From: Laspinema palackyanum D2a | Lineage (GTDB): Bacteria; Cyanobacteriota; Cyanobacteriia; Cyanobacteriales; Laspinemataceae | Reading direction: 5' to 3' | Assembly (NCBI GenBank): GCA_025370845.1 | Contig: JAMXFF010000018.1 | Location: 40,860 to 104,859, forward strand | DNA: 64,000 nucleotides | In this document: positions 30,464 through 52,770 of the stretch, piece by piece | Layout: each line of letters begins with the position of its first letter | How positions within the stretch are numbered: the first letter of the stretch is position 1 | Translations under genes and position numbers: made by a program | The notes under the pieces: generated by a model | Told to the model about the DNA's origin: nothing | Database searches by the model: none | What the model saw: the letters and a program-made list of their open reading frames with translations, nothing else

Positions 30464-30543
30464 ACTCGCTATAGCGGGAGTTCCCGATTCCTAACTGAAC
30501 CCAGGTGATGGGTCCCAGGGTAAGCAGCAGCCAGAGTACAGAT

Positions 30544-31740
30544 ATGAACAAAAAGCCGATTCGAGTTTTGCTGGTGGAGGATTCTCTAGTGGCGTTGATG
30601 ATTTTTAAGCGCCTACTGGGATCAACTCCCGAGATTGAAATTGTGGGGACGGCAAGGACGGGAATTGAAGGGTTGGAGTTGATTCCCCAGATTCATCCCC
30701 AGGTGATTTGTACCGACCTGCATATGCCGAAAATGGACGGGTTGGAGTTTACCAAAGAGGTGATGGCAAGGTTCCCCTGCCCGATTTTGGTGATCAGTTC
30801 TTCGGTACAAGCGGAGGATACTCACACGGTATTTAATTTGCTCAAGGCAGGGGCGGTGGATGTGTTTCCCAAACCGCGTCAGGGGGTGATGGGGAATTTT
30901 GAGGCGATTCGTCACGAACTGATTTCTAAGATTAAGGTGTTATCTGGGGTGACGGTGTTTACGTTGCATCGTCGGGGTGCAGGTGTTCGGGAGACGCCAA
31001 GAGCATCCCCGGGGGTTGTTCCCCCTAAAAATGCTGGCAAAATCCTCATCCCGGAACAGAAGCGAGTTGAGCCCGTGGTTCAAACGGTGAAAATTCCCTC
31101 GTCTTACACCCCGACTCCTCGTTATCCCTCTGCGCCTGCGAGTCCAGATGCGGCGGGTTCATTTCGGGGGGTGAAAATTGTGGCGATCGGGGCTTCGACG
31201 GGAGGACCCCAAGCGTTACATACGATTTTGTCTCAACTGCCTCCGAAGTTTCCGGTGCCGGTGATTTGTGTGCAGCACATTAGTGAGGGATTTTTGAAGG
31301 GGTTGGTGGATTGGTTGGGTTCGGAATGTCATTTGCCGGTGAAAATTGCTCCGGCAGGAGAACGACCCGAAGCGGGAATTATTTATTTTCCCCCGGAACA
31401 AAAGCATTTAGAGTTGGATAATAGCGGTCGGTTTCTGTATTCAACTCTCGGTCCCGTTTCGGGACATCGCCCTTCGGTGACGGTGACGTTTAATGCCGTG
31501 GCGAAGTTTTATCGCCGTGCAGCATTGGGAATTTTGCTCACGGGGATGGGTCGAGATGGGGCGGATGGGATGTTAGAACTCTTCAAGCAAGGGGGGGTGA
31601 CGATCGCCCAAAATGAGGCCAGTTCTGTGGTGTTTGGAATGCCCCGAGAGGCGATCGCCTTAAATGCGGCGCAGTATATTCTCCCGATTACGGATATTGC
31701 TCCCCTGCTCCTCCATCGCCTAATGAGCGATCGGCATTAG
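30544..31740 (+). CDS. cheB: Chemotaxis protein-glutamate methylesterase CheB
   Basis: CheB removes methyl groups from, and deamidates, receptor glutamines for adaptation. The 398-residue product has an N-terminal receiver (Asp58 in CTDLHMPKMDG), a variable linker (about 135-210) and the methylesterase domain. That domain shows the catalytic Ser in AIGASTGGPQAL, His in CVQHISEGF and Asp in TGMGRDGADGM. I take ATG 30544 (MNKKPIRVLLVEDS) as the start; GTG/ATG at 30505/30508 would add a 13-residue tail without family resemblance. It is the last gene of cluster A. The partner methyltransferase CheR is not in the window. Residues needed for activity are all present. Confidence 0.93.
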   Translation: MNKKPIRVLLVEDSLVALMIFKRLLGSTPEIEIVGTARTGIEGLELIPQIHPQVICTDLHMPKMDGLEFTKEVMARFPCPILVISSSVQAEDTHTVFNLLKAGAVDVFPKPRQGVMGNFEAIRHELISKIKVLSGVTVFTLHRRGAGVRETPRASPGVVPPKNAGKILIPEQKRVEPVVQTVKIPSSYTPTPRYPSAPASPDAAGSFRGVKIVAIGASTGGPQALHTILSQLPPKFPVPVICVQHISEGFLKGLVDWLGSECHLPVKIAPAGERPEAGIIYFPPEQKHLELDNSGRFLYSTLGPVSGHRPSVTVTFNAVAKFYRRAALGILLTGMGRDGADGMLELFKQGGVTIAQNEASSVVFGMPREAIALNAAQYILPITDIAPLLLHRLMSDRH

Positions 31741-33101: not shown

Positions 33102-36100
33102 TCATCGCTGTTTCATCACCACCAAAGTAATATCATCAAACACCTTCTGTTCCCCAATAAACTCCCGCACATCCTGAATCACCCCTTCTCGAATCGCCTC
33201 CGCAGACTCCTGCCAATACTGCGACACTACCTCACACAATCGGTCCATCCCATAGAACTCTCCCGCCATATTTTCCGCCTCCGGTATCCCATCGGTATAA
33301 AGCACCACCCCATCCCCAGGATTTAACTCCACTTCTGCCTGAGTAATAAAATCAGAAATATCCAACTCTAACCCCACCGGAAATCCTAAATCAATCGTAT
33401 CCAGTCGCTCAATTTCTCCCGTTCCTCGGACTACCAAAACCTCCTCATGTTGTCCGGTAATCCGCAACACCCCATCAGCATAATCCAACAACGCCAACGT
33501 CAGATTCTTATCCGTTCGCATCCGCTGCACGTTATCATGAATCATCCGGTTGATGGTATTCAAAAACTTCACATAATCTTTCTCATCATTCACTAACAAA
33601 GTCCGCACTGCGGTTTGCACCATCACCATCACCATTCCCGCTTCTAATCCATGTCCCGTCACATCCCCAATCCCGATTTTAATATGTCCCTCATGGTTCA
33701 AGACATCATAATAATCTCCCCCGATTTCATCAGCCGGTTCCATAAATCCAGCAATTTCTAATCCAGGAATTGCCTGCAATTCTTCGGGGTTCGGCAACAT
33801 TTTCTGTTGCAGTTGGCGGGTGACATCCAGTTCCGCACTCATCCGCAGGTTGTCGGATTTGAGCAGTTCATTCAGGGCGCTGATTTCTTCGTTGGCTTCC
33901 GCAAGTTGGGCGGTCCGTTCGATGACTTTATCTTCTAAAGTGCGATAGAGTTGGGCATTTTCTAGGGAAATTGCGGCTTGGGCGGAGATGACTTGTAAGA
34001 GTTCGATGCGTTCCGGGGTAAATGCGCCAGTTGCTAAGTTATTTTCTAGGTAAATAATGCCGGTGAGTTGTCCTTGATTGAGGAGGGGCGCACATAAAAC
34101 CGACTTAGGTTGATTCTGAACGATATAAGAGTCGGTGGTAAAAGTGCCAGCATTAGAGGCATCATTTAAGATGACGCTGGACTGAGTGCGGGCCACATAA
34201 TGAACGATCGCACTCGACAGTTCCAGACTTTCTTCAATTGGCACCGACTGCACGGCAATTTCTTCTGAACCATTGATAATTCCCGTAGCTTCAATCGATA
34301 ATTTTCCAGCGTCGGGCAAAATCAGAAACCCTTTTTGAGCACCGGCATTCTCAATCGTCAGCCGCATCAATTTATCCAGCAATTGATCTAAAACAATTTC
34401 GCTGGCAATGGCTTGGGAGGCTTTGACAACCGTTTCGATATCTAACCCTTTGCCATCCCGACCCGTTGTCGTCACGGATACTGGCCCGGTTTCTCCACTG
34501 CGCTGGGTGACTTTAACTAGAAGGTTGGGATAGGTTTCTGATAAGGATTTGAGTTTGGCCGTTGCTCCCCAGCTTGCATAACAAGCGTAGGCATTTTTAA
34601 GATAAAACTGCCCAATTTCTTCTCGGTCCAGAGTCAGATAATATTCAGCCGCTCGTTCGTAGGCTAATCCTTCTTCATGAATAAACCCTTGTTTTTTGGC
34701 TCCTTGGATTGCTTTTTCGTACAGGGTTTGAGCTTCCAAATGGTTGCCCGCGATGCGAGCCAGTTCCGCTTGTACCAAATCGTATTTATTTTGATAATTC
34801 TCTGGCGCATATTTCGCCCATTCTTTCATTAATTCCTGATTTGAACGGGCTTTGTTCAGGAATTCTGCTTTTTTGAGGGGGGGGGGGGTAGATTCGCTCT
34901 GGCAAACCGATACAAGGGCTACAGAGTAATAGAATATATGCTGGGGAAACACAACATAAGAAGCAGAACTCTCTCCATAAAGGTCGGCTTTTTGAGCAGA
35001 TTCCAAAGCGCTATCGAACTGATTCAAATAGGAAAAAGCAATGGTTTTTGCTAAATAGGTGATAAACAACAGCCATAAAGCATTGCCTTCCACCCAGGCC
35101 GCTAAAAACTGTTCCTCTTCTTCCCAGGAATTGCCAATTATTAATCCGTAGTCCTCTAAATCTTCTTTCAGCAAATTAACAGCAATTCCCCTCGCCGCTT
35201 CTATGTAATAGACGGAATAGACTTGCTTTAACTTAATCGTCAATTGGGTATATTCTGCATAGCGCGGTGCGAACTCTGTTAGGTTATAGCCTGCAAAGGT
35301 AGAAAATAAGGTGTAATCGATGGCGTTATAACAGGCATTCTCTAAATTTCCCGTTTCGATTCCCACCTGAATGCCTTCTTGCATTTGTTCCAGGGGGATG
35401 GCGCGAAACGGGTCTTTCCAATGCCGGACAAACCCATTGCTGTAATGAGTAACAAGGGCCTTAAAATCTCGAACATCGAGTTGATCCACCAACGTTAAAG
35501 ACAGTTGCCCCACTTGATATCCGGAATCAATATTTTTCATGGCTCCACACAAAAGTTGAGCGTAAAAAATATACACGGCAGCAGCAAAAGGAGAATTGCC
35601 ATGTTGAATACAAAGCCTTACGGACGTTAGGGTGACAATCGGATATAAGAGAGGATTAGTAATAATGGCAGCCGAGGTGACAATCAGTAAAATTCGGACA
35701 GCCGCAAGCTGATAGGGGTCGGTCATTTCCGGCAGATTGGCTAAATCTTCAATCTTTCGGTCACCCAATAGCTCTTTGATTACATTCTGTTCTGCTTCTA
35801 TCTGTTCCGGGGTAGGAGTTCGAGGCAATACCACACCCAAGGGTTCTAAAATTTCCAAAGCAGTCTCGATCGCCAACTGTAGCTGAAGTTGCGCGTACTG
35901 GGATTGAATTTTTAGCTCGTAGATTTTGACCCGCTCAAGTAGAGATTGAGCTTCTTGCAAAACCACAGCCCCTAATTGTTCCGCCTCTTCAAACCGCGTA
36001 TTCAGATAATACACTTCTACAGTTTCCACATGAAGTGCCAGCGTAAACTCATATTCAGTTTGCCAGCTATCTGGAGGCAGAAGTGCTAACCCCGCTTCTA

Positions 36101-38456
36101 AATATTGGAGAGCGGGTTCATACGCGGTAGAATCCTTGGCTTTTTTTCCGGCTTTCAAATTCAAACGAGCCAGTTGATTTTTCTCAGAATCCGTCGCAAT
36201 TAATTCCGCCCCCTTATTGAGTTGGTTGACAATATCAAAGATATTCTCTTCCAAGCTCTCCGGTGAGGTATTCTGTAGGAATAACCGCCCAATATTGAGG
36301 TGGAATTCTTTTTTTTGGGCTTCGGGAATCAAAGAATAGGCCGCTTGCTGAACCCGGTCATGCAAAAATTTGTAGGGAATATAAGCAGGATAACTGGCAA
36401 ACAATTCCAGGGGTGAATCCGGACTTTCTAACATGAGCGCCTCTCGATCCCACAGCATCGGAGTTTTGTAGGCATCGGTCAAGGGGACAATCAACCCTTC
36501 CTGAAGCGCGGATAACAAATCGTTCGCGGTTGCTGAAAGAGATTTAGCATTGACTACGGACAAGGTGTCTAAATCAAATCGGTTGCCCATACAAGCCGCA
36601 AGTTTCAGAACGTTCTGGCTACTGGCATCGAGCTTGCCAATTTTATTAACCATTAACTCCACCACATTATCGGTGATTCCGACTTGTTGGATAGCGTCAA
36701 TATTCCATTCCCAATTACCAGAATTGTAGTTAAAAGAGAGAAACTGTTCCTGATATAAATATTCCAGTAATTGAGTCAAGAAAAAGGGATTGCCCCCAGT
36801 CTTACTGAAAACCAGTTCAGTTAACGCCTCTGATTCCGCAGGGGAAACATTCAAAGTATCCCCAATTAATTGGCTAACTTGTTCAATCAATAAAGGCTGA
36901 AGCTGAATCGCATCCACTTGAGTCCCGGCTTTTTGAATCCGCTCTACGGTTAAGATAAACGGATGAGTAGGACTCACTTCATTGTCTCGATAAGCGCCAA
37001 TGGTTAGCAGGTATTGGTTGTCCGCATCACTCAGGAGTTGTTCCAGCAACTTCAATGAGGCAGAATCGGCCCACTGGAGATCATCGATAAACATCACTAC
37101 AGGATGTTCGGCTTGGGCAAAAACACTTACAAATTGTTGAAAGACTAAGTTAAAACGATTCTGTGCCTCGGTTGGACCCAACTGGGGAACGGGAGGCTGT
37201 TTACCCATAATTAGTTCTAATTCAGGTATCACTTCAATGATGACCTGAGCGTTGTTTCCTAACGCATTTAAGAGCTTTTGTTTCCAGATTTGCAATTGCC
37301 CTTCACTTTCCGTGAGCAACTGGCGGATTAATTCTTGAAAGGCTTGAATCAGGGAACTATAGGGAATATTTCGTTTAAATTGGTCAAATTTACCGGAGAT
37401 GAAATATCCTCGGGATTTGACCAGAGGTTTTTGAACTTCATTAACTAAGGCTGATTTACCGACACCGGAATAACCCGCTACCAATATCAGGACGGGAGTT
37501 CCTTGACCGAGACTATCCCAACTGTTTAAGAGTTGTTGAACTTCCTGTTCTCTTCCGTAGAGTTTCTGGGGAATTTGAAACTTATCGGATTGGTCCTGAC
37601 GGGCTAGAGGAAATGTAGAAATTTCCCCGTTAGTTTGTAATTGATTTAAACAGGTTTCTAAATCTAATTTTAACCCTCTAGCACTTTGATATCGCTCCTC
37701 AGCAGTTTTTGCCATCAGTTTCATGACCAAATCAGAAACAACCTGGGGAATCTTGGGGTCAATTTGAGCCGGTGGTACTGGCTGTTTAGCGATATGAGAG
37801 TGAACCAACTCTAAAGGAGCAGTTGCTGTAAAAGGAAGTTGATGGGTCAGTAGTTCGTAGAAAGTCACCCCTAATGAATAAAAATCCGTGCGGTAATCGA
37901 TCGCCCGGTTCATGCGCCCGGTTTGTTCGGGAGAAATATAAGCTAAGGTTCCTTCCAGGCGATCGGGGTTGAGAATCGTCGGATTTTCCCGAGACAAAAC
38001 GCTGGAAATGCCAAAATCGATGATTTTAACTTCCCCAGTTTCTGGGTTATAGACAATATTCGAGGGGTTAATATCCTTGTGAATGATATTGGCAGCATGG
38101 ATTTCTCCTAAACTTTCCGCAATGGCGATCGCCACAGTCAGAAATTCCCCCAGGGGAAACGGGCGTTCCGTCATCCACCCCTTTAAAGATTTACCGCCAA
38201 AATCTTCTAAAGTCATCACCAGACTGTTCTGGTATCGGTGCAAATCGTAGACTTGAACCACCCCCTTCCCCGCCAAGGACCGGGTAATTTCATATTCCTG
38301 TTTGTAGCGGGTGAGTTCGGAGGGATTGGGATAATCTTGTTTAAGAACTTTCAAAATCATCGGTAGATTGTCCCGTTCGCGAATCCCCCGATAAACTAAT
38401 GAATTGGCACTTTCATAAATAGGGCTGAGGATTTGGTAGCCCGTTAAATCAGTCAT
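33102..38456 (-). CDS. Giant Ser/Thr kinase - AAA ATPase - GAF - SpoIIE phosphatase fusion
   Basis: This 1784-residue protein joins four modules. (1) A Ser/Thr kinase domain (about 1-270): Lys36 in MILKVLK, catalytic HKDINPSN (Asp128), DFG at 147-149. (2) A PknB/AcyB-type STAND ATPase (about 297-560) with Walker A GYSGVGKS (328-335) and Walker B VVMFIDDLQWAD, plus a helical TPR-like region to about 1330. (3) A GAF domain (about 1365-1510). (4) A coiled coil and a PP2C/SpoIIE phosphatase domain (about 1555-1784) with GGDYYDVL, GDVTGHGLEAGMV and DDITLVVM. Most relatives end in a histidine kinase instead. It probably phosphorylates and dephosphorylates an anti-sigma-like or FHA target; that is inference. 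A run of 12 C residues lies within the coding strand. Confidence 0.9.
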   Translation of the reverse strand: MTDLTGYQILSPIYESANSLVYRGIRERDNLPMILKVLKQDYPNPSELTRYKQEYEITRSLAGKGVVQVYDLHRYQNSLVMTLEDFGGKSLKGWMTERPFPLGEFLTVAIAIAESLGEIHAANIIHKDINPSNIVYNPETGEVKIIDFGISSVLSRENPTILNPDRLEGTLAYISPEQTGRMNRAIDYRTDFYSLGVTFYELLTHQLPFTATAPLELVHSHIAKQPVPPAQIDPKIPQVVSDLVMKLMAKTAEERYQSARGLKLDLETCLNQLQTNGEISTFPLARQDQSDKFQIPQKLYGREQEVQQLLNSWDSLGQGTPVLILVAGYSGVGKSALVNEVQKPLVKSRGYFISGKFDQFKRNIPYSSLIQAFQELIRQLLTESEGQLQIWKQKLLNALGNNAQVIIEVIPELELIMGKQPPVPQLGPTEAQNRFNLVFQQFVSVFAQAEHPVVMFIDDLQWADSASLKLLEQLLSDADNQYLLTIGAYRDNEVSPTHPFILTVERIQKAGTQVDAIQLQPLLIEQVSQLIGDTLNVSPAESEALTELVFSKTGGNPFFLTQLLEYLYQEQFLSFNYNSGNWEWNIDAIQQVGITDNVVELMVNKIGKLDASSQNVLKLAACMGNRFDLDTLSVVNAKSLSATANDLLSALQEGLIVPLTDAYKTPMLWDREALMLESPDSPLELFASYPAYIPYKFLHDRVQQAAYSLIPEAQKKEFHLNIGRLFLQNTSPESLEENIFDIVNQLNKGAELIATDSEKNQLARLNLKAGKKAKDSTAYEPALQYLEAGLALLPPDSWQTEYEFTLALHVETVEVYYLNTRFEEAEQLGAVVLQEAQSLLERVKIYELKIQSQYAQLQLQLAIETALEILEPLGVVLPRTPTPEQIEAEQNVIKELLGDRKIEDLANLPEMTDPYQLAAVRILLIVTSAAIITNPLLYPIVTLTSVRLCIQHGNSPFAAAVYIFYAQLLCGAMKNIDSGYQVGQLSLTLVDQLDVRDFKALVTHYSNGFVRHWKDPFRAIPLEQMQEGIQVGIETGNLENACYNAIDYTLFSTFAGYNLTEFAPRYAEYTQLTIKLKQVYSVYYIEAARGIAVNLLKEDLEDYGLIIGNSWEEEEQFLAAWVEGNALWLLFITYLAKTIAFSYLNQFDSALESAQKADLYGESSASYVVFPQHIFYYSVALVSVCQSESTPPPLKKAEFLNKARSNQELMKEWAKYAPENYQNKYDLVQAELARIAGNHLEAQTLYEKAIQGAKKQGFIHEEGLAYERAAEYYLTLDREEIGQFYLKNAYACYASWGATAKLKSLSETYPNLLVKVTQRSGETGPVSVTTTGRDGKGLDIETVVKASQAIASEIVLDQLLDKLMRLTIENAGAQKGFLILPDAGKLSIEATGIINGSEEIAVQSVPIEESLELSSAIVHYVARTQSSVILNDASNAGTFTTDSYIVQNQPKSVLCAPLLNQGQLTGIIYLENNLATGAFTPERIELLQVISAQAAISLENAQLYRTLEDKVIERTAQLAEANEEISALNELLKSDNLRMSAELDVTRQLQQKMLPNPEELQAIPGLEIAGFMEPADEIGGDYYDVLNHEGHIKIGIGDVTGHGLEAGMVMVMVQTAVRTLLVNDEKDYVKFLNTINRMIHDNVQRMRTDKNLTLALLDYADGVLRITGQHEEVLVVRGTGEIERLDTIDLGFPVGLELDISDFITQAEVELNPGDGVVLYTDGIPEAENMAGEFYGMDRLCEVVSQYWQESAEAIREGVIQDVREFIGEQKVFDDITLVVMKQR
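34877..34888 (-). repeat. Homopolymer tract, 12 C on the coding strand
   Basis: Twelve G residues on the given strand (12 C in the coding direction) encode the Pro run in ESTPPPLKKAEF of the giant kinase, with AAAAAA close by. It is the longest homopolymer noticed in the window. Slippage by one base would shift the frame and cut off the GAF and phosphatase domains. Confidence 0.9.
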
Positions 38457-40010: not shown

Positions 40011-40505
40011 TTAATCGAGGAGTTTATCTAAGTTCAGATAGAAGGCAACAGTACCGTCCGGGGTGGTAATTATTTTTTCCACCGCTGCCGGTGCAGGATT
40101 GTTGCCTTCTCTGCCTTGTCGATAGGAGGTGGGAATTTCTGCAAATTTGTCTTCAGGGATGTCTAAAATGGCGGGTAAATTTTGGAGGGGAATACCAATG
40201 CGATCGCCATTGGTGAGGGTGCAGACAATTAAATAAGAATGCTCCTCCTGAACGGGGTTAAGGTTGAGAAATAGCCTGGATAAATCTAATAGGGTAATCA
40301 AATCTGCATCAATTTTAACTAAGCTGCGGCCTCCTTCGAGGGTTCCCTGGGGGGTAAAGTCGGTGAGGACGCGCTGCACCCGTTCGATGGCGATCGCATA
40401 GGTTTCTCCGGCGACTTCAAAGAGGACTAGCTTGCGCGTTGGGGTGCGCTGAATGGCGGCTTTTTTATTATGAAACCGGCGGCTGTATTTAGAGGGTGAA
40501 AACAT
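40011..40505 (-). CDS. CheW-like protein, last gene of cluster B
   Basis: The 164-residue protein has a CheW fold from about residue 25: LVLFEVAGETYAIAIERVQR at the first strands, then LVKIDADLITLLDLSRLF and YLIVCTLTNGDRIGIPLQ. It probably links receptors to the CheA hybrid encoded upstream at 40817-43666 or modulates another partner. The N-terminal 24 residues are basic and have no match in usual CheW. An upstream palindromic element separates it from cheA by about 310 bp, so it may be transcribed poorly or from its own promoter. It ends 20 bp from the converging Uma2 gene. Assignment as CheW-domain protein is good; adaptor role is inferred. Confidence 0.8.
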   Translation of the reverse strand: MFSPSKYSRRFHNKKAAIQRTPTRKLVLFEVAGETYAIAIERVQRVLTDFTPQGTLEGGRSLVKIDADLITLLDLSRLFLNLNPVQEEHSYLIVCTLTNGDRIGIPLQNLPAILDIPEDKFAEIPTSYRQGREGNNPAPAAVEKIITTPDGTVAFYLNLDKLLD

Positions 40506-40816: not shown

Positions 40817-43666
40817 CTATAGTGTTGCTCCGAGTAATTGAGCGATCGCCTCTAATAACTGACGTTCATTATAGGGTTTGGTAAAATATTGAACTGCACC
40901 TAGCTCCATTGCTCTTTGCCGATGTTTAGCACCGCTGCGGGAGGTTAACATTGCTACTGGAATATGAGAAAACTGGGGATTGTCTTTGACTTCTGCTAGG
41001 AATTCAAACCCATCCATGCGGGGCATTTCAATATCTGCAATAATTAAACTACATTTTAACCCGTGATGCAATTGTTCCAAGGCATCTTGACCATCTTTGG
41101 CCTGAGCAACTCGATAGCGTGCGCGGGTGAGGGTTAATGATAGCATTTGGCGAATGGTATAGGAGTCATCAATCACTAGAATTTGGGGTTGAGAGGGGAG
41201 GGGAGGAAGTAGGGGGACGGGGGTGCGAGTTCCTGGGGGAAGGGGATGATTTCGTCCCTGGGTTTCATTGTGAATGACAACGGCTTTTTGGATGTGAGGA
41301 TGGAGTTGTCCAATTAAGTCATCGACATCGAGAATGCTGACGACTTCGCCATCGCCGAGAATGGTGCAACCGAGGATGCCGGTGGGTTTGGATAAGGGTT
41401 GGGGGAGGGGTTTGACGACGAGTTCCTGTTGTCCGACGAGGCGATCGACGACGATCGCCAGAATCCCTTCACTTGAGCTTAATACCAGGACTGGCATATA
41501 ATCTTCTCCAACGGGTATCGGCGAAGGAAAATCGTGAGAGGACTCGTTGTAATGGAGTAAATGATTCAAGGGAACTAACCGAATATACTCGTCGCGCCAC
41601 CGTAACATCGGTTGATGCATGGCCATCTGGATTTCACTGGCGTTAACGTGCAGAATCTCTTCCACGGCATCGAGGGGTAAGGCGAGGGTCTGATGTTCGA
41701 TGCGGACTAATAAGGCATCGGAAATCGAGAGCATCAGGGGGAGTTTAATGATAAAGGTGGTTCCCCGACCGATGCGAGAGTCTACTTTGACGGTACCTCG
41801 CACTTGGCGCAAGTTGTTTCGCACAATATCTAAGCCGACCCCACGTCCAGACAAGTCATTTACCTCACGTTGGGTACTAAATCCCGACCAAAACAGGAAG
41901 TCGTAGAGTTCGTTGAGGGAGAGTTCTAAAGCTTGTTCTTCGGAGACGAGATTTAATTCAACCAGACGGGAACGAATGGTTTCCGGGTCGATGCCTTGGC
42001 CGTCATCGGAGATGGTGATGATAGTTTGTCCCCCTTGATGGCGCGCTTCGATTTCGATTTGGCCGTTGGGGGGTTTACCGGATGCTTTGCGGTCTTCCGG
42101 GGTTTCGATGCCGTGGTCGAAGGCATTTCGCACTAAATGTACCAGGGGGTCGCGCAAGGCGTGTAATAAGCTTTCATCAATTTTGGTATCTCGTCCGATG
42201 AGGAGGAGGTTGACATCTTTATTATAAGTGCGAGACATATCGCGGATGGCGCGAGGCAGGTGGTCCACGGCGCGACTGAAACTGACGACGCGCAACTGCA
42301 TGACTTGGGACCGGAGACGATCGCAAATTCGTCGGAGGCGATCGGTGCTCCGGTCCAGATTGAGGGCTACTTCGTCAATTTTGGCACTGGAGTGGGCGAT
42401 CGCCTGGGTGGTTTCGATGGTTTCTCGGGCCGTATCATGGAACTCACTATAATGATCCATTTCTAGGGCGTCGAAACCCAGGGGATGAGCGGGACTTCGA
42501 CCCTGATGGCTTTTTTCTCCGGCAAGGCGGTCATATTCTTCCCGCAGTTGTACCCCAAATTGATTCAAATCGCGGATGTGCCGTCGCAGACGTTTGACTT
42601 CGGCGCGCAGTTGGGTTTCCTGGACTTCTAAATGGGTGCGACTGATCACTAATTCTCCCACAAGGTCCACCAGTTCCGTGAGGCGATCGAGTTCCACCCG
42701 GATGGTGGGTTTGACTCCGGATTCACTGGGGGAGGAAGTCGGGAGTAGGGAGGGGTCGGCAGGAGGCGCACTCGGGGGACTGTCCGAGGGGAGGATCTCC
42801 GTGGGAGGAGGGACTGGAGAAATTGCTACATCGGGGTTAGGAGGGGGAATATCCATCGGTTGTAAGACGATGGGTAATTCTTGTAATACTTGTTCCCGGA
42901 GGGTTTCTAAATTTTGGGCAATTATCCAGCCCACTTTCTTCAGGTCTTCTCCGGATAAATTGGGGGTATCCACAGCGGTCCGCAGAGATTCGGCAATTCC
43001 CCCCAGTTCCGGGACTTCCAACATCCCGGCTAATCCCGAAAGCTGATAATAAATTTCATTAAAAACCTGATAAGATTTCTCTAAATTTTCCTCTTGCATT
43101 TGCGAGAGTTCGGTTTCTAATCGGTTAAAGATGGGGGGTAAATCTTGTTTAAAAATGGTCTGAATTACCCCGGTATTGGCGGGATGTTTTTGCATCCATT
43201 CGGCGGGTTCTTTTAATCCACCACATTCGGCTTCTAACTCTTCTTTGATGAGGGCGATCGCCTCCAAATCCGCCTGGAAATCTTTGGGGTCTTCTACTTG
43301 CTTTTCCCTAACCAGTGCCGTAGATTGGGCGGTGAGTTTTTTTAACAGGTCAACCCCTTGGAGGAGTTGAGTAATGGAACGGCTACTCAGGGGAGTCTCT
43401 TCCGGGCGATCGCGCAAAATTGCAAAACAATCTTCTATCCGGTGTGCCGCAGTCGAAAGCGACTGAAAACCAAACATCAACGCCGAACCCTTAATCGAAT
43501 GGGCGGCCCGAAACATTTCCTTAATGGTGCTTTTTCGAGCTTCTGCGGTCTCAATTTGTTCCATCGCCAACAACTGAGTTTCTAACGCCTGTAAAAACTC
43601 ATCGGTTTCGGCGATAAATGCCCCCAGAAGTTCTTGAATATCGTTAAAGTCCATTAATGATGACAT
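40817..43666 (-). CDS. CheA hybrid histidine kinase (PixL/PilL type) of cluster B
   Basis: The 949-residue taxis kinase opens with an HPt domain (His56 in RAAHSIKGSALMFG). A second HPt-like helix bundle (about 165-270) has Tyr207 in place of His (EIYYQLSGLAGML). A Pro-rich linker (285-325) follows, then the P3 dimerisation helices, the HATPase domain (HLVRNAFDHGIETPEDR, DLSGRGVGLDIV) and a CheW-like domain. A C-terminal receiver carries Asp878 (ADIEMPRMDGFEF). This layout is that of cyanobacterial phototaxis kinases such as PixL/TaxAY1 of type IV pilus systems. It is preceded by two receptors, CheW and a CheY-like gene on the same strand. Start ATG 43666; MDFNDIQELL is an alternative at residue 5. 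Confidence 0.93.
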   Translation of the reverse strand: MSSLMDFNDIQELLGAFIAETDEFLQALETQLLAMEQIETAEARKSTIKEMFRAAHSIKGSALMFGFQSLSTAAHRIEDCFAILRDRPEETPLSSRSITQLLQGVDLLKKLTAQSTALVREKQVEDPKDFQADLEAIALIKEELEAECGGLKEPAEWMQKHPANTGVIQTIFKQDLPPIFNRLETELSQMQEENLEKSYQVFNEIYYQLSGLAGMLEVPELGGIAESLRTAVDTPNLSGEDLKKVGWIIAQNLETLREQVLQELPIVLQPMDIPPPNPDVAISPVPPPTEILPSDSPPSAPPADPSLLPTSSPSESGVKPTIRVELDRLTELVDLVGELVISRTHLEVQETQLRAEVKRLRRHIRDLNQFGVQLREEYDRLAGEKSHQGRSPAHPLGFDALEMDHYSEFHDTARETIETTQAIAHSSAKIDEVALNLDRSTDRLRRICDRLRSQVMQLRVVSFSRAVDHLPRAIRDMSRTYNKDVNLLLIGRDTKIDESLLHALRDPLVHLVRNAFDHGIETPEDRKASGKPPNGQIEIEARHQGGQTIITISDDGQGIDPETIRSRLVELNLVSEEQALELSLNELYDFLFWSGFSTQREVNDLSGRGVGLDIVRNNLRQVRGTVKVDSRIGRGTTFIIKLPLMLSISDALLVRIEHQTLALPLDAVEEILHVNASEIQMAMHQPMLRWRDEYIRLVPLNHLLHYNESSHDFPSPIPVGEDYMPVLVLSSSEGILAIVVDRLVGQQELVVKPLPQPLSKPTGILGCTILGDGEVVSILDVDDLIGQLHPHIQKAVVIHNETQGRNHPLPPGTRTPVPLLPPLPSQPQILVIDDSYTIRQMLSLTLTRARYRVAQAKDGQDALEQLHHGLKCSLIIADIEMPRMDGFEFLAEVKDNPQFSHIPVAMLTSRSGAKHRQRAMELGAVQYFTKPYNERQLLEAIAQLLGATL

Positions 43667-43875: not shown

Positions 43876-46800
43876 TTAACTGCGGAAATTAGAAACCGAA
43901 TCTTGAAGTTGAGTCACTGCGATCGCCAGTCCATCTAAAGACTGACGAACTTGCAAAGATTTTTCTGCCGTTGTGGTAGAAATTGAACTCACTTTTTGCA
44001 TCACTCCCGCAATTTCTGAAGCATTTTCAGTTTGATTATTCGCGGCTCGCGTGATATTTTGAACCAGGGCATTCATCTGGCGACTGACTTCAATAATGGC
44101 CACTAAATGATGTTTCGCTTCAGCAGCTAATTTAGTTCCAGCAACCACCTCCTGAGTGCCTGCTTCCATTGCTTCGGTGACCCGTCCGATTTCGCTTCTA
44201 ATTTGTTCGACAATTTCGGAAATTTCCTCGGTAGCTGAACCGGAGCGATCGGCTAATTTGCGGATTTCTTCGGCAACTACGGCAAAGCCTAACCCCTGTT
44301 CTCCGGCGCGGGCCGCTTCAATAGTAGCATTCAGGGCCAATAGGTTGGTCTGAGCCGCAATTTGAGAAATGGACGTCACAATTTTACCAATTTGTTGAGA
44401 GCTTTCTCCCAACCGTTTAATCATTTTCCCGGTTTGGGAAATGGTTTGGCGCAGCTCGTTAATACCTTCAACGGCCCGGTCTACGGATTGGCCTCCCACT
44501 TCCGCAGTTTCGGCGGCTTGATGGGCAACCTTTTCGGCTTTTTGAGCCACGGTACAGATATCTTGAATTGAGTTAGCCATGCGCTCAATTTGGCGTAAGG
44601 AGAACTCAACTTGTTGAGCTTGTTCTCCCGCCCGTTCCGTTAAATCTTGGGTATTGGCGATGGATTCACGGGTGGCGCTGCGGACTTCCGTGGCGAGTTC
44701 TTGGATGCCGGTTACGACTTTTTTGAGGGAAGAAACCAGGAAATTAAAGGAGTCAGCTAAAGCCCCGAGAACACTATTAGTAACTTCAGCCCGCACGGTT
44801 AAATCCCCTTTAGCGGCCCCTTTAATTTCCATTAACAGTTTGAGAACCTGTTGAGTCAGTTCATCCGCTTCAGATTTGCGGTCTTGGGCGAATTGTTCCA
44901 ACTCTTGGGCGACTTGTTTGCGCCCGGTAATATCAAACCGGATGCCAATATATTTGACGACCTTGCCATGAGCATCAAAAATGGGAGAAATGGTGGTATC
45001 TACCCAATAATAGGTACCATTTTTGCACTGGTTTCTGAGTTCTCCTTTCCAGACGCGACCGGCGGTGATGGTTTTCCACATCTCCTCAAAGAGGGCTTGG
45101 GGATGATATCCGGAGTTAATCATCCGATGATTTCTGCCCAGGAGTTCGCCGCGAGAGTATCCAGAGATTTCGCAGAATTTATCATTCACAAAAGTGATGT
45201 TGCCCTCGCTGTCAGTTTCACTGACGATCGCCGCTTCATCGAGGGCATTTTGGCGAGTTTTGAGTTCTTGAAGCAGTTGGGCTTGTTCCGCAGCCAGCAA
45301 TCGAAATTGTTCCTCGGTTTGTTTGAGGGGGGTGATATCATGAGCAACAGCATAGAGCAATTCCTGTTGGTTGGAAGGATTCACACTCCAGGCTAACCAT
45401 TTATAAGAGCCATCTTTGCAGCGGTAGCGATTTTCAAAATAGATCGTTTCGACCCCTGTAGTTAGTTTTTGGGCTTCGGCAATGGAGGAGGCATGATCAT
45501 CCGGATGAATGAAATCGAAACAGGGTTTACCGAGGAGTTCGGCTTCACTATAGCCTAGGGTGCTGGTCCAAGCCGGATTAATCCGCTGAAATACGGCATT
45601 AAAGTCAAAGATAACCAGCAGATCTAGGGAAATGCTAAAGAATTGATCGCAGGTGACTTGGGCTAATTTGCGATCGCTAATATCGGTATAAACCCCTAAC
45701 CATTCCCGAATACTGCCATCGGTGGTATTGAGAATGGGGACAGCACGAACACTCATATATCGATACTCGCCATCGTGACGGCGCAGACGCTGTTCCACTT
45801 CATAAAGCACCCGATTTTGGACCGCGTGGTCCCAGGCTTGGGCCGTCTGTGGACGCTCATCGGGATGAACCGCATTGAGCCATCCTCGCCCCTTGAGTTG
45901 GTCGAAGGTTTGGCCGGTGAAGCTAGTCCAAGCCGGTTGTTCCGTGACGAATTCGCCATCGGCAGCGGTGTTCCAGATGATTTGAGAGGTGGCTTCAATG
46001 AGGGAACGGAAGCGCGCTTCGGACGTTTGGAGGGCTTTTTCGGCTTGTTTGCGATCGCTGATGTCGATGCCCATTTCCAGGACCAGCCGTTTCCCATCCA
46101 CATCATTACAGGGGTAATCATAGATTTGATAGGTGCGCCCGGTGTGAGGGTCTTGCCATTCCCACTGCTGCGGCTGTTTGGTTTCAAAGACTTGGGTGCG
46201 AATCTCGGAATGCAGTTTGCCACCGGGGTTCAAGAGGGTGGCAGCAGAACCCGAGTCACCAAAGAACTCGACAAATTGACGGTTGGCTAACTGGACTGCA
46301 TTGCTGCGATCGACCAGGTAGAGGAAGGCAGGAATCCCATCGAATAGGGTGGTGAGTCGCTGGCGTTCTGCTTCTAGGGCTTTTTCAATGGCTTTGCGAT
46401 CGCTGATATCCCGGACTAAAGCCAGCAGGAGGGTTTCTCCCTGGCGGGAAAATTTGCCTAGGCGGATTTCTACGGGGAAGGTGCTGCCATCGGCACGTCG
46501 GTGGAGACTTTCCAGGGTGAGGGCTTCGCTGGGATGTAACTGGGCCACAGCGAGGGTGCGTTCCTCACTGCGAAATCGCGGTTCGATCGCCTCTAAATTC
46601 AAGGTCAGGAGTTGATTCTGGCTATATCCTAAGCTCTCGCAAGCCCGCTGATTGACCGCTAAGATTTTGCCATCTAAGGTGGTCAAGAAGAAGGCATCCG
46701 CAGCATTTTGGACTAACTGCCGGAACCGTTCTTCACTCTCGGCGAGGGCGTTTTCTTGTTGTTTGCGATCGCTAATATCCCGAATCACCGTAGAAATACA

Positions 46801-47559
46801 ATCAATTTCCCCGTTGTCTTCTGTGTGGGCGACGAGCACTTGGGAGGCGGGAAATGATTCCCCATTGCGGCGTTTCATCAGGATTTCCCCAGTCCAGACC
46901 CCCTCAGCAATGGTGGTGGCGATCGCCTCTTCTAATTTCTGGCGATCGGGTCCTTCTTTAACGAAATCAAAAGCGGTGAAATCCGAGGCGGGTTGAGCTT
47001 CTGGAATCCCCGTCATTTTGCGGGAGGCTCGGTTCAGGTAATTGACCTTCCCCTGACTGTCGCAGACGCCGACAAAATCGGGGGTATTTTCAATAATCCG
47101 CGCCAGTCGTTTCAGGGCCGCTTCCGCTTGTTGGCGTTCTTTAATTTCCCCTTGCAGGGCTTGATTGGCCTGCTCTAGTGCGGCTTTCGCACTGGGGAGG
47201 GCCAGGGCTGCCGGTAGAGTCGGGACCATTTCGAGGGCCGTTAAGAGGGAAATACCAGCGGTGAGGGCTTTGATACTCCCGGAAATCCAATAGTCTGGAC
47301 GCCACAGGGTCCAGACTTCCATCACATGGGTGAATCCACAAGTAATAATAAAGGCCGCAAATAACAGAAAAATCCGACTAAAGGGTAAATCCGGGCGTTG
47401 CAAGACGAAATAAATCAACATCCCCACAATCGAAAAATAGGCCAAGGCGATCGCCAGGTCGGATCCGGCGTGCAGCCAAACTAACACCGGATTCCACAGG
47501 TAACAATGACCGTGGGGAATAAAATTTGCCGTGAGGAGGGTGGATAAGGGTTCCAACAT
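43876..47559 (-). CDS. Chemoreceptor with ethylene-receptor-like membrane domain and six PAS domains
   Basis: The 1227-residue receptor begins with a three-helix membrane domain (about 27-115) like the ethylene-binding domain of ETR1: Asp34, Tyr41 in ALAYFSI, Phe70, Ile71, Cys74 and His78 in [12 protein letters not shown]. Their spacing equals ETR1 D25, Y32, F61, I62, C65 and H69; C65/H69 bind copper and hence ethylene. About six PAS domains follow (about 148-895), then a HAMP-like segment ([15 protein letters not shown]) and an MCP hairpin tip [20 protein letters not shown]. Other known ethylene-type receptors end in a histidine kinase, so the signal here should go through CheW and the CheA hybrid. 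Second receptor of cluster B and paralogous to the one upstream. Family is secure; ethylene binding is predicted only. Confidence 0.88.
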
Positions 47560-47884: not shown

Positions 47885-50800
47885 CTAACTTCGGAAATGG
47901 GCCACAGATTGCTGAAGACTCTCCACGGAGACGGCCAAGCCATCTAGGGAATTCTGAACCTGGACTGATTTTTCTGCCGTATTTCCAGAAATGGCACTAA
48001 CGGCACGAATCATACTCACAATCTCCGTAGCACTATTTGTCTGCTTCGTTGCTGCGAGGGTAATATTTTCCACCAGGGCATTCATCTCCCCACTGACTTG
48101 GATGATCTCAATTAAATGGGTCTTAGCTTCTGCGGCCAGTTTAGTTCCGATCGCCACTTCCTGAGTGCCTGCTTCCATCGCTACAATCGCCCGTCCAATT
48201 TCACTCCTGATCTGTTCGACGATTTCGGAAATTTCTTCCGTTGCCAATCCTGAGCGATCGGCTAACTTGCGGATTTCTTCAGCGACCACAGCAAAACCCA
48301 GCCCTTGCTCTCCGGCTCTGGCCGCTTCAATCGTAGCATTAAGTGCCAATAAATTGGTTTGAGCCGCAATTTGGGAAATGGAAGTTACAATTTTGCCAAT
48401 CTGCCCCGAACTCTCCCCTAACCGTTCGATGGTTTTCCCCGTTTGAGAAAGGGTTTGTCGCAGTTTGTTAATGGCCTCCACTGCCCGATCCACCGACTCC
48501 CCACCCACTTGGGCTTTTTCGGCAGATTGTTGGGCCACATTTTCCGCTTGTTGAGACAGGGCAAACACTTCTTCAATCGAGTTAACAATCTTCTGAATTT
48601 TCTGGATTGTCTCCTCAATTTTTTGGGATTGTTCTTGGGCTTGGTGGGCCAATTCTTGAGTATTGGAAATCGATTCCCCCGTGGCAGTATTGGCTTCCGT
48701 TGCCAGGTGTTGAACTCCTTTAACCACTTTTCGCAAGGAGGAAATCAAAAAGTTAAAGGAGTCAGCTAAAGCCCCGAGAATGTCGTTGGTGACTGCCGCC
48801 CGCACGGTTAAATCCCCCTTCGCTGCCCCTTTAATTTGTTCCAACATTTTCAGCACCTGTTGCGTCAGGGAATCCATCTCCGCTTGCCGTTGAGCAGACA
48901 TGATTTCTAGGTCCGCGATTAACTGAGTTTTTTCCGCTTCTGCACCAATGCGATCGCCCACTTCTTGTTGTAGTTTCTCGTTGATTTCCTGCAACTCCTG
49001 GGTGCGTTGGACCACTCGATTTTCTAAGTCGGTGGCTAACTGTTCTAGGGCTTCTTGATTCCGCCGTTGTTCGGTCACATCTCGGGTAATTTTAGAGAAT
49101 CCCTGCAACTCTCCTTGAGCGTCCCGTAAAGGGGTAATAATCACATTCGCCCAAAATTGACTCCCATCTTTTTTGACCCGATATCCTTCATCTTCAAATC
49201 TTCCCTCGGTTTGGGCCGCTTTGAGTTCGGCTTCCGGTTTGCCACTGGTGCGGTCCTCTAGGGTATAAAACCGCTCGAAAGGCTGACCTAGAATTTCTGG
49301 CGCACGATATCCTTTAATTCTTTGCGCCCCCATATTCCAACTGGCCACTCGACCCGCTAGATCCAATCTAATAATGGCATAATCCTTGACACTCTCTACC
49401 AAAGAACGAAACCCTTCTTCACTTTCTCGGCGCGCTTCTTCCGCTTGTTTGCGTTCGGTAATATCTAACCCCGAGGCAATATATCCGAAAAAATTGCCCT
49501 CGCTATCAAACCGAGGCAATCCACTCATCCAACTCCAACAATACTCCCCATCCCAGCGTTTGAATCGCACTTCTAATTGGAAGGGTTGCCGCTCCTCAAA
49601 TGCGGTTTGATAAATATTAACGTATCGGTCTCTATCCTCTGGATGCAAAATTTGCATCCAGCCATAACCGAGGTCTTTTTCTAACGGTCGTCCCGTAAAC
49701 TCGACCCACCGTTTGTTAAAATAGCTCACCTGTTTATCGGGTCCGGCAATCCAAATAATGGCCGGAACCGTATCCGCCATCAACCGAAATTGTTGTTCAC
49801 TTTCTTGTAAAGCGCGTTCGGCTTGTTTGCGTTCGGTGATGTCCAAGGCGATCGCCACACAGGAAAGTTTATGAGTCTGTTGAATGAGTTGAATATACAT
49901 CTCAATCGGATAGACACTCCCATCAGCTCGGCGATGCATGGCTTCAAACCGCATTCTCTGTTCGCCGCCCTCTAATAAGGGAGCCAAAGCAGTTTTAGCT
50001 TCCCCGAGATTCACCACTGCTGGATTGATATCCATTGCTGTTTTTTTAAGGATTTCCTCCTGAGAATACCCCAAATTTAGACAGGCTCCTTTGTTTACAT
50101 ATTCAAAGCGCAGGGTATCCACATCAAAAACATAAATCTCGTTCAGACTAGACTCGACGACATTAAACAACCGCATCCGTTCTTGTTCCCCTTGCACCCG
50201 TTCCGTAATCACTTCCGTCAACAGCATAATGCCGCCGATTTCTCCGGTGCGATCGCGCCAGGGATACATCTCCCATTTTACCCAATCGATGCTGCCATCT
50301 ACCCGGGTATAGCCTTCCGCATCACAGCTAAAGGATTCTCCCCCTAAGACGCGCTGGAGCATATCTTTCACATGATCCGGCAGTTCCGGAAACAGCTCGT
50401 GGTGCGATCGCCCAATAATGTTTTTAACCCTCTGGAAGTCTTCTCTTTTATCCAGTTTATAATCTTTCACCCACCGTTCAGAGGCGACTACATAGCACAT
50501 TTGGCGATCGAGCATCGCCACGGCTGCCGGAAGATGTTCCAGAAATAATTTGAATTCTTCTTCCCGTTGGTGCAATTCCGTTTCCAGCTTCAAACAACTG
50601 CTGATATCTCGCACACTCACCCAAATCACCTCACGGTTATCTACAAGGGTGAGGGGTTTTCCCGAAATTTCCAGTTCCAATACGCTACCCCGTTTCGGTT
50701 TGAGGGCTTTCCATCTTAACGAGCCTCCCTTGCTCACTGCCGCTTCCAAATCAGCCTGAGATTGCCCGAAACTGGATAACTGGTTAAAAAAGTTTTTGCC

Positions 50801-51655
50801 TCGGAGTTGGGTCCGTTCCATGCCGTACAATTGACAGGCTTTTTCATTGGCATCTAAAATCGTTCCATCCCGTTGCTGAATCAAAATTCCCTCATTCATT
50901 TGATTCATAAAATCCGTGAAATCCGAGGCAATTGCTTCTGTATATCCCGGAATTTTTTCGTAGGTTGAAAGGATTCCCACTGGTTTTCCCTGGGGAGTTT
51001 TAACCGGCCATTGATGAATTTTCCAAAGCGATTCTGACCCCTCGCTTGGGGGGGAATTCGGAACTTGTACTAACAGGGTTTGGGAATTCTCTGGGTTAAT
51101 TTTCACCCAATTTTTCAACAGTTTACCCCCCCAAGAGAGTGTGCCGTCAGTTTTGCCGATCAGTTGTGCTGGAGATGCCACACCCACTTGTTCTGCAAAG
51201 CGCTGATTTCCCCCCAGGTAAACTCCTTGGCAATCTTGCCAAGATACCGCCCAAGGTAAGCAGTCCAGGGCCATTTGTAGGAATGAACCCCTCGAAAAGA
51301 TGCCACTGCCGAGGGTTTCCCGGATGCCTTGACGGTAGGTGAATAGGGCAAGCATCAAGGCGATCGCACTTGCGCTTTCCAAAGCATAGCTTAGGGTTTC
51401 CCACAGGGTTGAAACCGGAAGGGCGGCGGTGGAGAATAAATGGAAGAACCGACTCCCGGTGGCGACTGCTAAAAAAGCACTAACTATCCATAAAAAACGG
51501 CAATGCAGACGAGATACTGTGATTTGCAGGAGGATTAAAGTCATCCCCAAATAGGACAAGGCAATGACCCATTCTGCCCGGTTCTGTATCCCGACCCAAT
51601 CCGGAGCGCTCCCGATGGCAAAATACAGTTGAGAACCTATCCCGTTTATTAGCAT
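47885..51655 (-). CDS. Multi-PAS chemoreceptor with degenerate ethylene-receptor-like membrane domain
   Basis: The 1256-residue receptor has a hydrophobic N-terminal domain (about 25-115, [38 protein letters not shown]). This lines up with the membrane domain of the downstream receptor but lacks the copper ligands (Ala and Arg at the Cys and His positions). About six PAS domains cover 130-865 ([36 protein letters not shown] and others). A coiled coil, a HAMP-like segment ([15 protein letters not shown]) and the signalling hairpin [20 protein letters not shown] follow. The C-terminal 350 residues are near-identical in pattern to the next receptor, showing tandem duplication. The gene lies 47 bp after cheW and so is in the cluster B operon. 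The ligand is unknown. Confidence 0.88.
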
Positions 51656-51702: not shown

Positions 51703-52224
51703 TTACCACCCTTCAGATTGGGCGATCGCTTCCACATCTAAAATCATCACTAAGCGTCCCGTCCAATCATATAATCCCCTTAAAAAAGGTGCGAGTTCTT
51801 CCCCCACGTCCATGCTAGAAACCATGCGGTCAAGATGAACCGAAATCACCCCTTGCACGCGAGAAACGGCCAAACCCATTCGCATCATCACCAAGTTTCC
51901 ATCTCGCGGATCCGGCGCTTCTAAAATTAAAATTCGACTATGCACCGAATGACTATCCACCCCGTCAGTCCGCAAAAACCGACCAAAATCCGCCACGGCT
52001 AAAATTTCTCCCCGCAAATTGGTCAATCCTAGGACAAAATGACGGGTATTCGGTACCGGTGCGATCGGTTGCTGCCCCAAAAATAGCACCTCCCGTACTG
52101 ACAGCAAATCCACCGCAAAGAGGCTCTCTCTTTGTCCAAACAACAGAAATTGCTTGAGGTTCCCGGCATTGGGGGAACCGGGCAACTCACTCATCCCAGA
52201 ACTGAGGGTCAATTTTCCAGCCAT
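51703..52224 (-). CDS. cheW: Chemotaxis adaptor CheW
   Basis: The 173-residue CheW links receptors to CheA. The fold is evident from QFLLFGQRESLFAVDLLSVR near residue 24, then LGLTNLRGEILAVADFGRFL with the conserved NLRG turn, and VSRVQGVISVHLDRM. The C-terminal WTGRLVMILDVEAIAQSEG completes the second barrel. It lies 47 bp before the first large receptor and about 190 bp after the CheY-like gene, all on the minus strand. The 20-residue N-terminal extension is Ser/Gly-rich, without known function. The start ATG at 52224 is followed by an alternative Met at residue 11. Confidence 0.9.
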   Translation of the reverse strand: MAGKLTLSSGMSELPGSPNAGNLKQFLLFGQRESLFAVDLLSVREVLFLGQQPIAPVPNTRHFVLGLTNLRGEILAVADFGRFLRTDGVDSHSVHSRILILEAPDPRDGNLVMMRMGLAVSRVQGVISVHLDRMVSSMDVGEELAPFLRGLYDWTGRLVMILDVEAIAQSEGW

Positions 52225-52410: not shown

Positions 52411-52770
52411 TTATAATAGGCGTTCGACAATATTGACCAATTGCTGGGGGTCAACAGGTTTGGTAATATAGGCATCGGCTCCCAAATCCATGCCCCAAGT
52501 CTTATCAATCTCTGTATTTTTTTGACTGCAAAACACCACAGGTAACTTGGACGTCTTGCGATCGCCCCGTAACTCTCGGATCACCTCAAATCCATTCATC
52601 CGAGGCATCACCACATCCAGAATCACCAGATCCGGTGCCGTCTCCTGAATCCGGGCGATCGCCTCCTCCCCATTCGTGGCCACAACCACCTCCATCCCGG
52701 CTTTTTTCAAAATCCGGCCAATCATCTCCAGTTCGCTCGGCACATCATCTACCACTAAGATTTTGCTCAT
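52411..52770 (-). CDS. CheY/PilH-like single-domain response regulator
   Basis: The 119-residue receiver has Asp52 as phospho-acceptor (LVILDVVMPRMNGF), the acidic pair Asp8/Asp9 (LVVDDVPSE), and the conserved Ser/Thr-Lys pair in FCSQKN and ITKPVDPQQL. It is the first gene of cluster B and probably the output or phosphate sink. In related type IV pilus systems PilG and PilH do this and act on the pilus motors. Only one such protein is here; a PilG-like partner with a PATAN domain is not seen in the window. Start ATG 52770, single and clear. Confidence 0.88.
   Translation of the reverse strand: MSKILVVDDVPSELEMIGRILKKAGMEVVVATNGEEAIARIQETAPDLVILDVVMPRMNGFEVIRELRGDRKTSKLPVVFCSQKNTEIDKTWGMDLGADAYITKPVDPQQLVNIVERLL

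What the first reader, a model, noticed from the sequence alone, without database searches (positions are those of the whole stretch)
43876..47559. Chemoreceptor with an ETR1-like ethylene-binding domain
Seen: Asp34, Tyr41, Phe70, Ile71, Cys74 and His78 are present, each exactly nine positions after ETR1 D25, Y32, F61, I62, C65 and H69. Known: in ETR1 and SynEtr1 (Synechocystis slr1212), Cys65/His69 bind copper and so ethylene. Inference: here the sensor is fused to six PAS domains and an MCP signalling domain in a CheA/CheW operon. That would make it an ethylene- or copper-responsive taxis system rather than a two-component switch.
Basis: partly seen in the sequence, partly recalled or inferred. 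Interest (0 to 1): 0.8.

Follow-up and report, generated by a model that had tools for sequence, protein, structure and literature searches.

The report
Chemoreceptor with ethylene-receptor-type membrane sensor
A filamentous cyanobacterium carries a motility-control receptor whose membrane part is the same kind of copper-and-ethylene sensor that plants use, but one of the seven residues plants need is changed and several relatives have lost the copper cysteine, so ethylene sensing is plausible but unproven.

Summary
The 1227-aa protein at 43876-47559 (-) is a chemoreceptor with a genuine ETR1-type domain (PF25487, E=1.7e-36), six PAS domains and an MCP domain. It lies in a CheY-CheW-MCP2-MCP1-CheA/REC-CheW cluster of a Laspinema cyanobacterium. 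The six listed residues are present, but ETR1 also needs Pro36: here Val45, and V or M in all eight Laspinema orthologues. The cluster is conserved in the order; its receptor slot varies. I read it in 42 of 58 genomes with a close match: 11 have the domain with Cys and His, 7 without the copper Cys, 8 only a doubtful look-alike, 12 an unrelated membrane domain, 4 not judged. Oscillatoria sp. PCC 10802 and three other genomes keep all seven residues. I found no report of this fusion in the open-licence library (passages of 11 papers). Bacterial ethylene taxis is known, but its receptor TlpQ did not bind ethylene. Verdict: a new combination of known parts. Copper binding is likely; ethylene as the Laspinema ligand is about even odds. 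Oscillatoria PCC 10802 is the better test subject.

The parts
43876..47559 (-). MCP1: chemoreceptor, 1227 aa, ETR1-type domain + six PAS + MCPsignal
47197..47484 (-). ETR1_N domain of MCP1 (residues 26-121), three predicted membrane helices
   Evidence: PF25487 E=1.7e-36; AF2 helices 24-54, 61-86, 90-119, mean pLDDT 90
47326..47340 (-). codons of C74 to H78; C74 and H78 align with ETR1 C65 and H69 (copper ligands)
   Evidence: role from PMC6586836 and PMC11819568, passages
47425..47427 (-). codon of V45, at the place of ETR1 Pro36, an essential residue in ETR1
44893..45249 (-). PAS6 (residues 771-889), close to PAS domains of the 3ewk sensor protein, Aer and NifL
   Evidence: (query residues 755-890): 3ewk E=1.7e-48, 8dik E=5.6e-23, 2gj3 E=3.5e-17; that these hold FAD is recalled
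43981..44532 (-). MCPsignal domain of MCP1 (residues 1010-1193)
   Evidence: PF00015 E=2.7e-40
47885..51655 (-). MCP2: neighbouring chemoreceptor, 1256 aa, PAS repeats + MCPsignal
51311..51583 (-). N-terminal region of MCP2, possibly a decayed ETR1-type domain without the copper Cys (open)
   Evidence: ETR1_N 19 bits E=0.009, no match at E<=0.1; hhalign 31% against 0.2% for an unrelated domain; own profile 7.9 bits, E=0.38
51703..52224 (-). CheW
   Evidence: PF01584 E=4.5e-25
52411..52770 (-). CheY-like lone receiver
   Evidence: PF00072 E=8.7e-31
40817..43666 (-). CheA with C-terminal receiver (Hpt, dimerisation, HATPase, CheW, REC)
40011..40505 (-). second CheW-like protein
   Evidence: PF01584 E=1.6e-11

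Best explanation
MCP1 is a membrane chemoreceptor of a cyanobacterial chemosensory cluster of the kind that governs type IV pili. Its ETR1-type three-helix domain holds Cu(I) through C74 and H78 and lets an ethylene-like small ligand reach it from the membrane. Binding shifts the helix that runs into the coiled coil and PAS chain, and so alters CheA activity, the phosphorylation of CheY and of the CheA receiver, and gliding or twitching. PAS6 probably adds a flavin redox input. Shown here: homology, domain order, six of seven ligand-site residues, conserved gene order, purifying selection. Inferred: copper loading, ethylene as ligand, coupling to CheA, motility output.
For: ETR1_N E=1.7e-36. 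Six of seven essential positions, both copper ligands and Lys97 (ETR1 K91, AzoEtr1 K98) are kept; AzoEtr1, a tested ethylene binder, has the same six plus Pro. Cys and His are kept in 7 of 8 Laspinema species, and the domain is under purifying selection (mean pN/pS 0.19, 21 pairs of 7 species). Confident three-helix model with a fourth helix running on. The same fusion in the same kind of cluster keeps all seven residues in Oscillatoria sp. PCC 10802, G112, G097 and G081. Precedent: ethylene stimulates phototaxis of Geitlerinema and Synechocystis down to 8 nL/L (PMC6682694, abstract and passages). Three pilT-family genes over the cut-off in the genome.
Against: Pro36, essential in ETR1, is Val45 here; 10 of 86 other reference rows also lack Pro there, so this is not decisive. 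The copper Cys is lost in the receptors of G005, G009, G049, G089, G174, G161 and G142, so the cluster persists without it; ETR1-type domains of other proteins in the family genomes kept it in 23 of 24 full-length rows (best loci only). Twelve of 42 clusters read have an unrelated membrane domain in the same slot. No binding, copper or motility result for any of these proteins came up in this work.
Confidence: 0.48

Rival explanations
1. Copper or redox sensor, not ethylene: the domain holds Cu(I), but with Val in place of Pro36 it no longer takes ethylene; the receptor reports copper or redox state together with the flavin-type PAS6.
For: Pro36 is changed in all eight Laspinema species while seven of them keep Cys and His; PAS6 resembles PAS domains of the 3ewk sensor protein, Aer and NifL.
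Against: Position 36 also varies (S, A, T) in other cyanobacterial domains of this family that keep Cys and His, so it may not decide ligand choice in bacteria. I recognised no copper-handling gene by eye among the neighbouring ORFs (no domain scan of them).
Confidence: 0.22
2. Membrane anchor and dimer domain with a fading ligand site: the PAS domains do the sensing and the ETR1-type domain is kept mainly as an anchor.
For: The copper Cys is lost in 7 of 18 clusters read that carry the domain, against 1 of 24 full-length rows of other ETR1-type proteins in the family genomes; the slot is filled by an unrelated membrane domain in 12 of 42 genomes read.
Against: In Laspinema the ligand-site residues other than position 36 are fixed in 7 of 8 species, and the domain is under purifying selection like the PAS repeats (pN/pS 0.19 against 0.14-0.34). 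Three genera keep Cys and His.
Confidence: 0.23
3. Another hydrophobic gas or olefin is the natural ligand and ethylene only an analogue.
For: P36 of ETR1 lies in immediate proximity to the modelled ethylene sites (PMC6586836 passages), so its change could alter ligand choice.
Against: No direct evidence for any other ligand.
Confidence: 0.07

Closest known systems
SynEtr1/UirS (Slr1212, Synechocystis) and AzoEtr1 (Azospirillum): bacterial ethylene receptors
   Same: ETR1-type N-terminal three-helix domain. AzoEtr1 has D, Y, I, I, C, H at the same places; SynEtr1 was not compared here.
   Different: They are histidine kinases with a response regulator (PMC11819568 passages); PMC5812497 says UirS has no MCP-like domain (passages). 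Here the output is an MCP in a CheA/CheW cluster, and Pro36 is Val.
GeiEtr1 and GeiEtr2 (Geitlerinema PCC 7105)
   Same: Filamentous cyanobacterium with the same domain; ethylene changes its phototaxis (PMC6682694 passages).
   Different: Described as ethylene-binding + GAF + kinase proteins (GeiEtr2 also PAS and receiver) with all seven residues, not chemoreceptors.
TlpQ, the Pseudomonas ethylene-taxis chemoreceptor
   Same: An MCP needed for taxis to ethylene.
   Different: Its ligand domain binds polyamines and histamine and showed no ethylene binding by calorimetry (PMC6234866 passages); no ETR1-type domain is mentioned in the passages read.
Cyanobacterial tax/pil/hmp/pix chemosensory clusters
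   Same: CheY, CheW, MCP and CheA genes (PMC7076178 passages); known regulators of type IV pili (PMC12288463 passages).
   Different: In the passages read they answer to light or to unknown signals; none is said to have an ETR1-type receptor. I did not place this cluster on a tree with the Synechocystis ones.

Membership tests
ETR1_N / ethylene-binding-domain family (PF25487) | Score above the curated cut-off | tested here: met
   124.8 bits against 27
ETR1_N / ethylene-binding-domain family (PF25487) | Three membrane helices at the N-terminus | tested here: met
   AF2 helices 24-54, 61-86, 90-119, mean pLDDT 90; three hydropathy peaks before residue 122
Functional ethylene receptor (ETR1 sense) | All seven residues essential in ETR1 | tested here: not met
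   Six of seven; Pro36 is V45 (Y32 as one of the seven is recalled). Met in Oscillatoria PCC 10802, G112, G097 and G081 (read by eye)
Functional ethylene receptor (ETR1 sense) | Copper ligands Cys65 and His69 | tested here: met
   C74, H78
Functional ethylene receptor (ETR1 sense) | Saturable ethylene binding, copper loading | not testable with these tools
   needs protein
Methyl-accepting chemotaxis protein | MCPsignal domain | tested here: met
   PF00015 E=2.7e-40
Methyl-accepting chemotaxis protein | Partner CheA and CheW encoded nearby | tested here: met
   conserved gene order
Methyl-accepting chemotaxis protein | Methylation by CheR/CheB | not tested
   -
Two-component ethylene receptor (SynEtr1 type) | Histidine kinase output in the same protein | tested here: not met
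   no HisKA or HATPase match at E<=0.1 in the protein

The most novel reading that the evidence does not exclude
This cluster is a directly ethylene-sensing chemotaxis system: the kind of ethylene sensor that plants use also exists in cyanobacteria as a chemoreceptor that steers pilus-driven movement. MCP1 and its possibly decayed neighbour MCP2 would form mixed assemblies in one array. Lineages that lost the copper Cys would have retuned the same system to another input.
Probability: 0.35. Interest if true: 0.8.

Novelty: new variant of a known kind. Interest (0 to 1): 0.56.

Why it matters
Ethylene changes phototaxis in cyanobacteria, and Pseudomonas swims to ethylene, but the chemoreceptor needed for that, TlpQ, showed no ethylene binding; in what I read no chemoreceptor is shown to bind it. 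A fusion of the known ethylene-binding domain to a chemoreceptor makes direct ethylene taxis testable. The natural series of intact, Pro36-changed and Cys-lost versions in one conserved cluster is a ready set for asking which residues bacteria need to sense ethylene, copper or something else.

Tried and rejected
Considered and rejected: a chance match (one search rules it out); a fusion unique to this genome (searches show others). In plasmids 19 records match; only 7 have a named product under the match, none named a chemoreceptor, 5 have no gene listed there and 7 records have no annotation at all, so this says little.

Led nowhere: AF2 of the MCP2 N-terminus with three sequences gave pLDDT 41 and is not used. 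No solved structure resembles the domain by sequence (best E=0.26, xanthorhodopsin) or fold (none at E<=0.001, best E=0.45). That MCP2 carries a decayed ETR1-type domain stays unproven. For: 19 bits, E=0.009 in this genome, 22 bits, E=8e-4 in G006, hhalign 31% against 0.2% for an unrelated membrane domain. Against: no match at E<=0.1; hhalign falls to 12% when distant rows are added, and the unrelated domain reaches 5% against those rows; my own profile gives 3.4-8.5 bits in Laspinema, E 0.25-9.5, which is chance level. The eight genus-g6 receptors are no better: 2.8-8.6 bits in seven and no hit in L168, E 0.23-14; hhalign 46%; but C-x3-H is invariant in the seven aligned and present in L165. 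Their class, 'doubtful look-alike', is my judgement.

Limits of the trees and samples. The domain tree has few columns for its rows and an unsettled bootstrap; I left out the fragment L175 and the duplicate L053, and did not include L195. It does not show one origin for the chemoreceptor-linked domains. In the CheA tree I labelled L196 'out', though it belongs with g6. The 94 reference rows were partly picked by a pattern that contains the Cys, so their fixed Cys is no independent evidence; one search is less biased but holds only the best loci. In some searches the listed rows show at most two candidates scored per genome, so other fusions may be missed. Phyla other than cyanobacteria were not surveyed, apart from plasmids.

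Full report
What is there. The minus-strand ORF 43876-47559 encodes 1227 aa. Pfam gives ETR1_N at residues 26-121 (E=1.7e-36), PAS repeats and MCPsignal at 1010-1193 (E=2.7e-40). I count six PAS repeats from the six closing motifs of the translation. Same-strand neighbours, in transcription order: a lone receiver (52411-52770), CheW (51703-52224), a second chemoreceptor MCP2 (47885-51655), this receptor MCP1, CheA with a receiver (40817-43666) and a second CheW-like protein (40011-40505). The gap between MCP2 and MCP1 is 325 bases, so a single transcript is not shown; promoter-like sites (18, shuffles 13.1, sd 4.1) and terminator-like sites (18, shuffles 18.6) are not clearly above chance.

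Where it comes from. A relative in the same genus is named Laspinema olomoucense D3b: locus L053 lies on a contig of the same length, 237507, as G003:C68. The own genome has four ETR1_N proteins over the cut-off. The other three are histidine kinases (L044 and L045; L046). ETR1_N is common in the order: 148 of 194 genomes at E<=0.001.

The ligand site. ETR1 has seven residues essential for ethylene binding; a paper names I35, P36 and I62 beside C65 and H69 (PMC6586836, passages). D25 is supported by PMC11819568 (passages), and Y32 is recalled. On that list the window has D34, Y41, I44, I71, C74 and H78, but V45 in place of Pro36. The eight Laspinema orthologues have V (7) or M (1). AzoEtr1 of A. 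brasilense Sp7, read from the plasmid record L193 and a tested binder, has all seven. Of 94 reference rows 18 lack Pro at this place. Eight of the 18 are Laspinema chemoreceptor rows (one species counted twice, as L040 and L053); of the remaining 86 rows 10 have S, A or T. So the change departs from the plant rule but is not unheard of in the bacterial family.

Relatives. A full-length search of 388 genomes of the order found a match at E<=1e-95 in 58. I fetched and read the region in 42 of the 58, the window included; the 16 not read are all of genus g6 (classes). Domain with Cys and His: 11 (seven Laspinema, G128, G112, G097, G081). Domain present, copper Cys lost: 7 (G005, G009, G049, G089, G174, G161, G142). 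Doubtful look-alike of genus g6: 8. Unrelated membrane domain: 12. Not judged: 4 (G626, G655 and G533 start at a contig end; the short receptor of G016 lies beside a different CheA). G128 is Oscillatoria sp. PCC 10802: its contig length, 6929393, equals that of NZ_KB235948.1. That receptor and those of G112 and G097 keep all seven residues, and so does that of G081, read by eye. The receptors of G097 and G081 are short, 598 aa; Pfam sees only ETR1_N and MCPsignal over their cut-offs in that of G097.

How it evolves. Among seven Laspinema species the domain has mean pN/pS 0.19 over 21 pairs, against 0.14-0.34 for the PAS stretches and 0.04 for the signalling part. In G005 the copper Cys is Ala, F70 is Leu and I71 is Met, residues 267-381, about one PAS repeat, have no match, and MCP2 is gone from its place except for a relic matching its first 37 codons. 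A search of that genome, 92% complete, with MCP2 found no second copy: its two matches are MCP1 itself and a 41% identical signalling part. In G009 the Cys is Ala and the Tyr is Glu, while MCP2 is present. In the CheA tree, receptors with the domain lie in two parts: beside relatives with another membrane domain in family f20 (99/99), and in f28, f9 and f1, joined at 88/80 only. In the domain tree the intact domains of G097 and G081 group with the Cys-less ones of G049, G089 and G174 at 98/92, which speaks for loss from a working ancestor there; that tree has few columns and its bootstrap had not settled. As a control, ETR1-type domains other than this receptor in the family genomes kept Cys in 23 of 24 full-length rows and His in 24 of 24, two species having a broken gene besides (best loci only).

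MCP2. Its N-terminus may be a decayed copy of the same domain. For: 19 bits in this genome and 22 bits (E=8e-4) in G006, when no control genome matched at E<=0.001; hhalign 31% for the Laspinema rows against 0.2% for an unrelated membrane domain. Against: no Pfam match at E<=0.1, 12% with more distant rows, chance-level scores with my profile, no useful model. I treat it as open.

Structure. AF2 of residues 1-150 with 45 sequences gives mean pLDDT 90 (about 60-65 for the first 20 residues), three long helices (24-54, 61-86, 90-119) and a fourth (124-149), which I take for the start of a coiled coil. [quoted passage not shown] I had no coordinates to measure this here.

PAS6 is closest to PAS domains of the 3ewk sensor protein, Aer and NifL, which by recall hold FAD, so a redox input beside the membrane input is likely.

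Mechanism. The most likely working is a Cu(I)-holding membrane sensor that changes CheA activity through the PAS chain and the MCP hairpin, with pili as output. The genome has three pilT-family genes over the cut-off, and chemotaxis-like systems are regulators of type IV pili in cyanobacteria (PMC12288463, passages). Ethylene stimulates phototaxis of Geitlerinema and Synechocystis at nL/L levels (PMC6682694, abstract and passages). Everything after the domain homology is inference.

Literature. I searched for ethylene-binding domains or receptors together with chemotaxis, chemoreceptor or MCP terms. I opened passages in 5 of 5 listed papers for, 4 of 9 for, 6 of 17 for, 5 of 9 for, 0 of 1 for and 2 of 3; one search found no paper. 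No listing or passage describes this fusion (passages). The library holds open-licence papers only. The papers of 2006 and 2016 by the main workers were not held. A 2003 paper on sensory domains of cyanobacterial chemoreceptors (seen as a reference) and a 2017 review of the sensory repertoire of chemoreceptors (seen as a reference) were not read and could mention it. Pseudomonas is attracted to ethylene through TlpQ, yet its ligand domain did not bind ethylene (PMC6234866, passages).

Verdict. The reading as an ethylene or copper chemoreceptor is reasonable, weakened for ethylene by V45 and by losses of the Cys in relatives, and strengthened by the intact version in Oscillatoria and three other genomes. 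It is a new combination of two known parts.

Noticed in passing
window 23891-31740 (+): A second chemosensory cluster: two small MCPs (MCPsignal over the cut-off), a CheA with receiver (BLAST to the first CheA) and a CheB-like protein (by eye).
   Followed up: no
window 33102-38456 (-): A 1784-aa protein that reads like a Ser/Thr kinase, AAA-type ATPase, GAF and PP2C-type phosphatase in one chain (by eye from the translation, no domain scan).
   Followed up: no
L042 8880-8990: Relic of MCP2 (first 37 codons) in a Laspinema species whose MCP1 has lost the copper Cys: partner loss and Cys loss in the same genome.
   Followed up: partly
L163, L164, L165, L166, L167, L168, L180, L191 (N-termini of the long receptors): Genus g6 receptors of 1431-2095 aa with a conserved C-x3-H motif in a membrane domain that resembles the MCP2 N-terminus (hhalign 83%; seven of the eight aligned).
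   Followed up: partly
L176-L179, L181-L183, L185-L188, L192 (N-termini): An unrelated conserved membrane domain fills the receptor slot of the same cluster in 12 genomes.
   Followed up: no
L019 and L020 (G010, G011): ETR1-type domain gene broken by stops in two species of one genus, with the copper-site His changed to Tyr.
   Followed up: no
L169 9139-10902 and L184 7442-9202: Short receptors with the same MCP part (63-65% identical) but no large sensor region, beside a different CheA (sensor judged by eye).
   Followed up: no
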